Source: Desulfofustis sp. (lineage in GTDB: Bacteria; Desulfobacterota; Desulfobulbia; Desulfobulbales; Desulfocapsaceae). Taken from it: a stretch of 16,153 nucleotides of DNA. Position 1 is the stretch's first letter; every line of letters begins with the position of its first letter. Below, piece by piece: positions 565-3,777 of the stretch. The position numbers and the translations under genes were made by a program. Location: the NCBI GenBank assembly GCA_030604345.1, contig JAUVWB010000007.1:1-16153 (forward strand), in the 5' to 3' direction. The notes beneath the pieces are model-generated. The model did not search any database. It was not told where the DNA came from and worked only from the letters and a program-made list of their open reading frames with translations.

Positions 565-2148
565 TCAGGCAAACTTTTGTACAGGTTTTACCGCCACCGG
601 CTTGTTCCTCATCTCTTTGAGCGCCTTGACGAAGGCGGCGGCACCGCTGATGGTGGTGGTATACGGAATGTGCAGGTCGATGGCAGCCCGGCGAATCCGG
701 TAGCTGTCCTCGGTGGTCCTCCGTCCCAGAGAGGTATTGACGATCCAGGCAATGTCGTGATCCTGCACCTTGTCGAGGATATGCGGCCGGCCCTGGGATA
801 TTTTATTGATCCGTTGGCAGTCGATTCTGCTTTCCTGGAGAAAAAGAGCGGTGCCGTCGCTGGCGTAAATCGAGAAACCGAGTTCAATCAAGACCCTGGC
901 GATGGACACAACGGCCGGTTTGTCGTCGTCACGAACCGATATGAAGACGTTGCCGGTGGTGGGCAGCGATGATCCGGCTGCCAATTGCGCCTTGCCCAGA
1001 GCCATGCCGAGATCGTCGTCGATGCCCATCACTTCACCGGTAGATTTCATCTCCGGCCCGAGTAGGGAATCGACTCCGGCGAAACGATCGAAGGGGAAGA
1101 CCGCTTCCTTGACCGCCCAGTGTTTGATTCGTACCTCTGCGGTGACACCGAGTTCGGCCAGGGTCTTGCCGAGCATGACCTTGGTTGCCAGTTTGGCCAA
1201 CGGCACGCCGGTCGCCTTGCTGACGAAGGGCACGGTTCTCGAGGCACGCGGATTGACCTCGAGCACATAGAGGGTGTTGTCCTTGACGGCAAACTGCACG
1301 TTCATCAGGCCGATGACGCCGAGCTCGGCGGCCATGGCTTTGGTGGCTGCCATGATCTCCTGCACCATCGACTCGGGCAGGGTATGGGGGGGCAGAACGC
1401 AGGCCGAGTCGCCGGAGTGGATCCCGGCTTCCTCGATATGCTCCATGATACCGCCGATGACCGTCTGATGGCCGTCGCTGATGGCATCCACATCGACTTC
1501 GACGGCATCTTCGAGAAACTGGTCGATCAGGATTGGGTGATCCGGGGCAATTTCAGCGATAGTACGCATGAATTCGCGGATGCCGTCGTCGTTGTAAACG
1601 ATGCGCATGGCCCTGCCGCCGAGCACGTAGGATGGACGGACGACAACCGGATAACCGATGTGAGCGGCGGCTTGCAACGCCTCTTCAAGGGTCTGGACGG
1701 TATCGTTTTTCGGTTGCCGCAGGCCGAGCTTGCGCAGCAGCTGCTGGAACCGTTCGCGGTCTTCGGCCCGGTCGATGGCGTCGGGCGGGGTACCGATAAT
1801 CTTGACCCCTGCCGCCTCCAGGGGAACCGCGAGATTGAGAGGGGTCTGGCCGCCGAATTGAACGATGATGCCGTCCGGTTGTTCCCGTTCGATGATGTTG
1901 AGCACGTCCTCCCGGGTGAGCGGTTCGAAGTAGAGCTTGTCGGACGTGTCATAGTCGGTGGAGACGGTCTCCGGATTGGAGTTGACCATGATTGATTCCA
2001 CCCCCATCTCGCTCAGCGCAAACGAAGCATGGACGCAGCAGTAATCGAATTCGATGCCCTGACCGATCCGGTTCGGTCCGCCGCCGAGAATCATGATTTT
2101 CTTACGCGGGGTGCGAGACGCTTCGTTTTCCTGCTCGTAGGTGGAGTA
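565..2148 (-). CDS. carB: Carbamoyl-phosphate synthase large subunit, C-terminal half (after in-frame TAG)
   Basis: This stretch continues in the same frame as the N-terminal half and stays open for 527 codons to a TGA. It holds the second ATP-grasp unit, which phosphorylates carbamate to carbamoyl phosphate. It starts with the ILGGGPNRIGQGIEFDYCC motif and carries the metal-binding LEVNPRAS motif. The last ~135 residues form the MGS-like allosteric domain. The first methionine codon after the stop is at 2094, directly before ILGGGPNRIG, at the known domain boundary. That ATG has no good Shine-Dalgarno site (the preceding bases read CGTAAGAAAATC), but it lies only 54 nt past the stop, so reinitiation is conceivable. 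With the N-terminal half and one residue for TAG the total is 1070, the normal CarB length. Whether the two parts are made as one or two proteins cannot be told from sequence. Confidence 0.92.
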   Translation of the reverse strand, partial: YSTYEQENEASRTPRKKIMILGGGPNRIGQGIEFDYCCVHASFALSEMGVESIMVNSNPETVSTDYDTSDKLYFEPLTREDVLNIIEREQPDGIIVQFGGQTPLNLAVPLEAAGVKIIGTPPDAIDRAEDRERFQQLLRKLGLRQPKNDTVQTLEEALQAAAHIGYPVVVRPSYVLGGRAMRIVYNDDGIREFMRTIAEIAPDHPILIDQFLEDAVEVDVDAISDGHQTVIGGIMEHIEEAGIHSGDSACVLPPHTLPESMVQEIMAATKAMAAELGVIGLMNVQFAVKDNTLYVLEVNPRASRTVPFVSKATGVPLAKLATKVMLGKTLAELGVTAEVRIKHWAVKEAVFPFDRFAGVDSLLGPEMKSTGEVMGIDDDLGMALGKAQLAAGSSLPTTGNVFISVRDDDKPAVVSIARVLIELGFSIYASDGTALFLQESRIDCQRINKISQGRPHILDKVQDHDIAWIVNTSLGRRTTEDSYRIRRAAIDLHIPYTTTISGAAAFVKALKEMRNKPVAVKPVQKFA

Positions 2149-2151
2149 CTA
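2149..2151 (-). other. In-frame amber (TAG) codon interrupting carB
   Basis: The minus strand reads CCT TAC TAG TAC TCC ACC TAC GAG. CarB proteins usually have an aromatic residue, mostly Tyr, here (YTPYYYSTYE-like), so one base change from TAC or TAT explains it. The frame is intact on both sides. cmoB, ydbL and ydbH in this window also end in TAG, so TAG works as a normal stop here. Confidence 0.9.
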
Positions 2152-3777
2152 GTAAGGGGTGTAGGATTCGAACTCGGCGCCGCAGGTGTCCACCAGCTTG
2201 TAAACCGGCAAAACTCCCAGCCGATGGCGCAGACCACGGATATCGTCTTCGGCGGTCTGGGTGAGAAAGGCCAGTTGCCGATCGGAAAAACCCTGCTGCT
2301 TGCAGGCGTGCAGAAAATCCCGGTCAAGTCCGCGGAAACCGCGTTCCGTGATAGACTTTTCGGTCTCGACGATCTGCTTGAGGTTGTTGATAAACCAGGG
2401 ATCGATACCGGTCAGGGCGGAGATCCTGGTGGTCGACATGGATCGCTTCAAGGCTTCGTAAATATAGGAGACCCGCTTGGAACTGGGGGTCAGAAGACCG
2501 CTTTTCAGGTCCTCGTCATCCAGGTGGCTCAACACCTCCCTGCCGTCGCCGCCAAAACCGAAACGCCCGGTTTCCAGGGAGCGCATCCCCTTCTGGAAAG
2601 CCTCTTTGAAGGTTCGACCGATGGCCATGGTCTCACCGACCGATTTCATGGACGTGGTCAGGTAGTCGACGGCATCGGGAAACTTCTCGAACGTCCAGCG
2701 TGGGATCTTGACCACGCAGTAGTCGATGGTCGGCTCAAAAGAGGCGTAGGTCTCACGAGTGATGTCGTTGCGGATCTCGTCCAGGGTGTAGCCGACCGCG
2801 AGCTTGGCGGCGATCTTGGCGATGGGGAATCCGGTGGCCTTTGAGGCCAGCGCCGAGCTGCGCGATACCCGGGGGTTCATCTCGATGACCATCATCTCCC
2901 CATCCAGCGGGTTGACGGCGAACTGGACGTTGGAGCCGCCGGTCTCCACGCCGATCTCACGGATGATGGCAATGGCGGCGTCACGCATCTCCTGGTATTC
3001 GCGATCGGTCAGAGTCTGGGCCGGGGCGACGGTGATCGAGTCGCCGGTATGAACGCCCATCGGATCCATGTTCTCGATGGAACAGATGATGACCACGTTG
3101 TCGTTGCGGTCGCGCATCACCTCCAGCTCAAACTCCTTCCAGCCGAGCAGGCTTCGCTCGAGCATCAGTTCGCTGGTCATGGACAGGTCCAGGCCTTGTT
3201 TGCATAAGGTCTCGAGTTCCTGGCGGTTATAGGCGACACCGCCGCCGGTACCGCCGAGGGTGAAGCTCGGTCTGACGATCAGCGGGAAGCCGATGTCCTC
3301 GCCGGCCCGCATCGCCTCGTCGAGGGTATGAACGATGATCGACTCCGGGACCTTGAGGCCGATGGCCCGCATGGCGGCACGGAATTCCTCACGTCCTTCG
3401 GCCTTGCGGATAACCGAGATGTCGGCAGCGAGCATCTCCACCTGAAATTGCTCCAGGATCCCCAGTTCGGCTACCTTGATGGCCGTGTTCAGGGCGGTCT
3501 GGCCACCGAGCGTCGGCAACAGGGCGTCGGGGCGCTCCCGTTCGATAACCTTCGCCACCATCTCCGGGGTGATGGGTTCGATATAGGTGGCGTCGGCAAG
3601 ACCGGGGTCGGTCATGATAGTGGCCGGGTTGGAGTTGATCAGCACCACCTCGTAGCCTTCCTCTTTCAGGGCCTTGACCGCCTGCGTGCCGGAATAGTCG
3701 AACTCGCAGGCCTGGCTGATGATGATGGGGCCGGAGCCGATGATCAGGATCTTCTTGATGTCTGTTCGTTTGGGCAT
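2149..3777 (-). CDS. carB: Carbamoyl-phosphate synthase large subunit, N-terminal half (ends at in-frame TAG)
   Basis: CarB combines bicarbonate, two ATP and ammonia from CarA into carbamoyl phosphate for pyrimidine and arginine synthesis. This 542-residue part begins MPKRTDIKKILIIGSGP and holds the carboxyphosphate ATP-grasp unit, including LINSNPATIMTDP, the glycine-rich FTLGGTGGG loop and the metal-binding IEMNPRVSRSSALASKATG motif. The oligomerisation domain follows and ends at AEFESYTPY. It starts 61 nt after carA on the same strand. I see no strong ribosome binding site before ATG 3777, so coupling to carA is likely. The family norm is about 1070 residues in one chain. Separate carB halves do occur naturally (Aquifex, Methanocaldococcus) with a break at nearly the same place. 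The break could be a natural split, a nonsense mutation or a sequence error. Confidence 0.92.
   Translation of the reverse strand: MPKRTDIKKILIIGSGPIIISQACEFDYSGTQAVKALKEEGYEVVLINSNPATIMTDPGLADATYIEPITPEMVAKVIERERPDALLPTLGGQTALNTAIKVAELGILEQFQVEMLAADISVIRKAEGREEFRAAMRAIGLKVPESIIVHTLDEAMRAGEDIGFPLIVRPSFTLGGTGGGVAYNRQELETLCKQGLDLSMTSELMLERSLLGWKEFELEVMRDRNDNVVIICSIENMDPMGVHTGDSITVAPAQTLTDREYQEMRDAAIAIIREIGVETGGSNVQFAVNPLDGEMMVIEMNPRVSRSSALASKATGFPIAKIAAKLAVGYTLDEIRNDITRETYASFEPTIDYCVVKIPRWTFEKFPDAVDYLTTSMKSVGETMAIGRTFKEAFQKGMRSLETGRFGFGGDGREVLSHLDDEDLKSGLLTPSSKRVSYIYEALKRSMSTTRISALTGIDPWFINNLKQIVETEKSITERGFRGLDRDFLHACKQQGFSDRQLAFLTQTAEDDIRGLRHRLGVLPVYKLVDTCGAEFESYTPY

What the first reader, a model, noticed from the sequence alone, without database searches (positions are those of the whole stretch)
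2094..2160. carB carries an in-frame amber codon exactly in the linker between its two synthetase halves
The frame is intact for 542 codons before and 527 after TAG, with all motifs kept, so the gene has not decayed. The stop replaces a usually aromatic residue, and the next ATG (2094) begins the second synthetase domain. The linker is a small part of the protein, so a random nonsense change landing there is unlikely. Options are a natural split with reinitiation, readthrough or suppression, a recent nonsense mutation, or a sequencing error. carAB is normally needed for pyrimidine synthesis, which argues against simple loss.
Basis: partly seen in the sequence, partly recalled or inferred. Interest (0 to 1): 0.75.

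Follow-up and report, generated by a model that had tools for sequence, protein, structure and literature searches.

The report
Lone stop codon in one carB
One environmental contig from a relative of the sulfate reducer Desulfofustis limnaeus carries a single-base change that puts a stop codon in the middle of an otherwise healthy carbamoyl-phosphate synthetase gene; it looks like an isolated recent mutation or a base-call error rather than a new way of decoding or a settled split gene.

Summary
On the minus strand carB (3777-565) reads 542 codons, TAG at 2151-2149 (codon 543), then 527 codons and TGA, in one frame. The window is a whole 16,153-base contig, 93% identical to D. limnaeus, where codon 543 is TAC. 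It is the only disruption: the 13 other genes I compared are open, and both carB halves show purifying selection (dN/dS 0.062 and 0.095).

Recoding is disfavoured: PylS passes its cut-off in 0 of the 6 genomes with the closest carB, and 3 of 12 window genes end in TAG exactly as in D. limnaeus. A settled split is disfavoured: 0 of 257 genomes of the order have a stop at codon 543 in the motif searched, and ATG 2094 has no ribosome-binding-site-like sequence. The linker position is only mildly surprising (26 of 288 possible one-step nonsense changes).

Desulfofustis has a second full-length CarB (2 of 2 genomes), which could let such a mutation survive. Nonsense allele and consensus error cannot be separated without reads. 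Loose end against this reading: a 542-residue CarB from another lineage (P0143) ends at the same residue.

The parts
565..3777 (-). carB, carbamoyl-phosphate synthase large subunit, 1070 codons plus TGA, interrupted once
   Evidence: 97% protein identity to P0002 named Desulfofustis limnaeus
2149..2151 (-). in-frame TAG, codon 543 (TAC in D. limnaeus and D. glycolicus)
2149..3777 (-). first open piece, 542 aa plus TAG: first pre-ATP-grasp, ATP-binding and oligomerisation domains
2095..2148 (-). 54 nt between TAG and the next in-frame ATG; no ATG, GTG or TTG in frame; AGGA 34 nt upstream of the ATG, none at usable spacing
565..2094 (-). second open piece from ATG 2094, 509 aa: second ATP-grasp half and MGS-like domain; held in the protein collection as P0242
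3839..4990 (-). carA, small subunit, intact
   Evidence: TIGR01368, 492 bits against a cut-off of 307

Best explanation
A recent single-base nonsense allele (TAC to TAG at codon 543) in a Desulfofustis strain close to D. limnaeus. Shown: the change, its isolation in an otherwise conserved gene and contig, and the presence of an intact codon and of a second full-length CarB gene in the two Desulfofustis genomes searched. Inferred: translation stops at residue 542, little or no second half is made, and carbamoyl phosphate supply is wholly or partly covered by the second CarB, perhaps with residual activity from weak readthrough or reinitiation. The second CarB has not been shown in the window's own organism, whose genome is not held.
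For: Codon 543 is TAC in both Desulfofustis relatives, so one transversion suffices. dN/dS against D. limnaeus is 0.062 before and 0.095 after the stop, so the gene was under selection until recently. The 13 other genes compared have no internal stop, and the only indel inside a compared gene is 3 nt. A second full-length CarB (52% and 51% identity, no stops) is in 2 of 2 Desulfofustis genomes and passes the equivalog cut-off (1361 against 1027 bits). 0 of 257 genomes of the order have a stop at codon 543 in the motif.
Against: No reads are available, so an error in the contig is not excluded. CarB2 in D. limnaeus stands beside a PurF-like gene, not a carA, and only one CarA is found, so whether it can replace CarB1 is unknown. 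The change falls in the linker, where a nonsense change does least damage, and P0143 ends at the same residue, both of which a functional split would predict.
Confidence: 0.45

Rival explanations
1. A consensus error in a metagenome contig: the organism has an ordinary carB and the TAG is a wrong base.
For: One base in 16,153 is involved, in one contig; no other copy with TAG was found, and 0 of 257 genomes of the order have a stop there. Disrupted carB copies occur in public assemblies anyway: of the 150 match rows listed one (G180) has an in-frame TAA, at query position 969, and G058 has a broken frame near codon 905.
Against: No sign of poor quality in the contig: no frame-breaking indel inside any of the 13 other genes compared.
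Confidence: 0.35
2. A functional split gene: ribosomes stop at TAG, restart at ATG 2094, and the two chains assemble with CarA, as in Aquifex CPS.A and CPS.B.
For: The stop falls between domains, all domains are kept and both halves are conserved. Split CPS works in Aquifex aeolicus (passages of PMC6022934). P0143 (542 aa, 257-kb contig) ends exactly at residue 542, and four more proteins than the window's own start at the equivalent of Met562: P0262, P0292, P0299, P0310. Of truncated CarBs on contigs of 30 kb or more, 4 of 21 (4 of the 7 at 79% identity or more) end within residues 524-568.
Against: ATG 2094 has no ribosome-binding-site-like sequence at usable spacing, and Met562 is an ordinary internal residue in both Desulfofustis relatives. 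Starting there removes the first positions of the pre-ATP-grasp domain (profile from 6 in the window, from 2 in the intact CarB2). P0143's closest full-length relatives have Ile or Val at 562, so its second half would lack that start, and its DNA was not seen: its end could be a contig edge. Three of the four truncations near the linker are not stops at 543: P0158, P0168 and P0198 look like frameshifts from their tails.
Confidence: 0.13
3. Amber decoding: the TAG is read as an amino acid by pyrrolysine machinery, a suppressor tRNA or programmed readthrough.
For: PylS is present in 5 of 257 genomes of the order, and marine Deltaproteobacteria with pyrrolysine are described (passages of PMC8318568).
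Against: PylS passes its cut-off in 0 of 6 genomes with the closest carB, two Desulfofustis among them. The five PylS-bearing genomes have no in-frame stop in carB. 3 of 12 window genes whose end is in the window terminate in TAG, at the same place as in D. limnaeus, with the next stops 17, 48 and 27 codons on. ARAGORN finds no tRNA in the window. The passages of PMC8318568 found hold no mention of Desulfobulb-, Desulfofustis or Desulfocaps- names.
Confidence: 0.05

Closest known systems
Intact CarB of Desulfofustis limnaeus (P0002, G118)
   Same: Same gene order and frame across the window; 97% protein identity; Met562 present
   Different: Codon 543 is TAC, not TAG
Split CPS.A and CPS.B of Aquifex aeolicus (PMC6022934, passages read)
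   Same: Two synthetase halves as separate chains, broken between the halves
   Different: There the halves are separate genes with demonstrated activity; here there is one stop, no evident start signal, and no relative in the order with a stop at this codon
Pyrrolysine proteins of marine Deltaproteobacteria (PMC8318568, passages read)
   Same: In-frame TAG within a conserved gene
   Different: No PylS in the close relatives; TAG still ends ordinary genes of the window; known cases are methylamine methyltransferases

Membership tests
CPSase large subunit (CarB) | All domains of both halves present | tested here: met
   Pfam D1, D2, D3 in the first piece; D1, D2, MGS in the second
CPSase large subunit (CarB) | One continuous chain passing the TIGR01369 cut-off of 1027 bits | tested here: not met
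   840 and 662 bits for the two pieces; 1535 for intact P0002. Each piece alone passes NF003671 (cut-off 599).
Natural split CPS (Aquifex type) | Second half has its own translation start | tested here: inconclusive
   ATG 54 nt after TAG, no ribosome-binding-site-like sequence at usable spacing
Natural split CPS (Aquifex type) | Split fixed in related genomes | tested here: not met
   0 of 257 genomes of the order have a stop at codon 543 in the motif; P0143 is a possible exception outside the held genomes
Natural split CPS (Aquifex type) | Both chains made and active together | not testable with these tools
   needs expression data
Pyrrolysine-containing protein | pylS in the genome | tested here: not met
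   0 of 6 closest-carB genomes over the cut-off; the window's own genome is not held, so this is by proxy
Pyrrolysine-containing protein | TAG avoided as an ordinary terminator | tested here: not met
   3 of 12 window genes with their end in the window stop at TAG
Decayed pseudogene | Several disruptions or relaxed selection | tested here: not met
   one stop, no indel in carB, dN/dS 0.062 and 0.095

The most novel reading that the evidence does not exclude
A gene fission caught at birth: one base change splits CarB at the linker, restart at the pre-existing Met562 supplies the second chain, and the split is tolerated because the two halves assemble in trans. The same end point in P0143 would then be a second, independent case.
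Probability: 0.1. Interest if true: 0.5.

Novelty: new member of a known kind. Interest (0 to 1): 0.17.

Why it matters
If it is a nonsense allele it shows only that a Desulfofustis population can carry a broken main carB, probably thanks to a second CarB. If the two halves work as separate chains, it would be a one-mutation natural experiment on how split carbamoyl-phosphate synthetases, such as that of Aquifex, arise.

Tried and rejected
Pyrrolysine: PylS family searched in 6 genomes and in 257; present in 5 of 257, not in the Desulfofustis genomes. Selenocysteine was not pursued because the codon is TAG. Pseudogene decay was rejected on dN/dS and on the absence of other lesions. Clustering of truncations at the linker: 4 of 21 truncated CarBs on contigs of 30 kb or more end at residues 524-568, and 4 of the 7 closest ones; this runs against my reading, is small and post hoc, and was not tested formally. 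The DNA behind P0143 was sought among relatives but the species is not among the held genomes; the closest held relative (94% to P0055) has TGC at codon 543. Paper searches (listings seen) showed no paper whose title or abstract start describes a stop in the carB linker; only PMC6022934 and PMC8318568 were opened, passages only.

Full report
What is there. On the minus strand the window carries carB from 3777 to 565: 542 open codons, TAG at 2151-2149, 527 open codons and TGA, with no shift of frame. The stop is codon 543, between the oligomerisation domain (match ends at 506) and the second synthetase half. The next in-frame ATG is 2094, codon 562, 54 nt further on. In E. coli CarB the aligned residue is Met, in the same stretch between the halves (alignment).

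Where it comes from. No genome is held for the window. The protein collection lists the window's own second piece as P0242 on a contig of 16,153 bases, so the window is a whole contig. The closest full-length CarB is P0002, named D. limnaeus, 97% identical. G118, whose contig has the same length as that of P0002 and encodes it at 100%, matches the window end to end: 15,027 of 16,153 aligned bases identical, five gaps.

How isolated the change is. I compared 13 other genes of the window with G118; none has an internal stop, and the one indel inside them is 3 nt long (the gene set is my choice, and two of the 13 run off the contig). Codon 543 is TAC in D. limnaeus and D. glycolicus. dN/dS to D. 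limnaeus is 0.062 for codons 1-542 and 0.095 for 544-1070. Polarised with D. glycolicus, the window has 3 and 5 derived amino-acid changes in the two halves and D. limnaeus has 4 and 6, so the window's second half is not evolving faster.

Is the position special? Residue 543 is variable: Cys 78, Tyr 36, Ala 3, Ser, Phe and Leu 1 each in 120 aligned proteins, which are the 120 listed of 7,999 scored. In loci of close relatives read directly the codon is TAC, TAT, TGC or TGT, so it is usually one transversion from a stop. Of 288 one-step nonsense changes in the D. limnaeus gene, 26 fall in 507-556 and 12 in 543-561: 9% and 4%.

Does it recur? In 257 genomes of the order, 0 match the motif with a stop at codon 543 (the same pattern finds the window). 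G058 has a broken frame near codon 905. Against my reading: among proteins, P0143 (542 aa, 85% identical, a 257,491-base ENA contig) ends exactly at Tyr542. Its nearest full-length relative is P0055 at 98.7%, with Ala at 543, as in P0076 and P0058, while P0090 has Ser. Ala to stop takes two changes unless through Ser (reasoning from the code). Four proteins besides the window's own begin at the equivalent of Met562 (P0262, P0292, P0299, P0310); why they begin there is not known. Of 21 truncated CarBs from then on contigs of 30 kb or more, 4 end at 524-568, and these are 4 of the 7 with at least 79% identity; three of the four look like frameshifts from their tails.

Recoding. PylS passes its cut-off in 0 of the 6 genomes with the closest carB, the two Desulfofustis included, and in 5 of 257 genomes of the order (control Methanosarcina acetivorans positive). 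Those five have no in-frame stop in carB. In the window 3 of 12 genes with their end present stop at TAG, at the same place as in D. limnaeus, and reading on would add 17, 48 and 27 residues. The window has no tRNA gene.

Reinitiation. The 20 nt before ATG 2094 contain no ribosome-binding-site-like sequence; the one AGGA nearby is 34 nt upstream. Met562 is also present in both Desulfofustis relatives, where it is internal. A product starting there matches the pre-ATP-grasp domain from profile position 6. Split CPS works in Aquifex (PMC6022934, passages), so a split is possible in principle.

Tolerance. Both Desulfofustis genomes carry a second full-length CarB at 52% and 51% identity without stops. 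The D. limnaeus one passes the equivalog cut-offs (1361 against 1027, 1516 against 599) and stands beside a PurF-like gene (TIGR01134, 201 bits, under the cut-off of 350). Only one CarA-like match of full length is found in each. In one search, 15 of 257 genomes have two matches at the strict cut-off. So loss of carB might be bearable, but this is inferred: the second gene has not been seen in the window's own organism, nor its function tested.

Verdict. The most economical account is one recent base change, real (0.45) or an error (0.35). A working split is 0.13 and amber decoding 0.05.

Noticed in passing
L158 7066-10269 and 10379-11782 (D. limnaeus); L159 (D. glycolicus): A second full-length CarB next to a PurF-like amidotransferase gene in both Desulfofustis genomes, without a carA beside it. 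Its role is unknown.
   Followed up: partly
   Followed up: partly
proteins P0158, P0168: Two CarBs on contigs of 417 and 66 kb lose frame at the KK-I stretch before the second half; an A-run there is my guess, the DNA was not seen.
   Followed up: no
carB codon 543 in Desulfobulbales relatives: The residue toggles between Tyr (TAC, TAT) and Cys (TGC, TGT) in close relatives.
   Followed up: partly
L160-L164: PylS above its cut-off in 5 of 257 genomes of the order.
   Followed up: no
window 12355: 153 bases present in D. limnaeus are absent from the window between genes.
   Followed up: no
window 565-3777: Each half of the broken carB alone passes NCBIfam NF003671 (897 and 764 bits, cut-off 599), so an automatic pipeline could name both pieces full large subunits.
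   Followed up: no
window 2149-3777: The window's second piece is listed in the protein collection as P0242, but its first piece did not appear among the 120 listed hits of its own search.
   Followed up: no
window 6769-7449: A 226-aa protein, conserved in D. limnaeus (93.8% DNA identity), with no Pfam or NCBIfam match.
   Followed up: no
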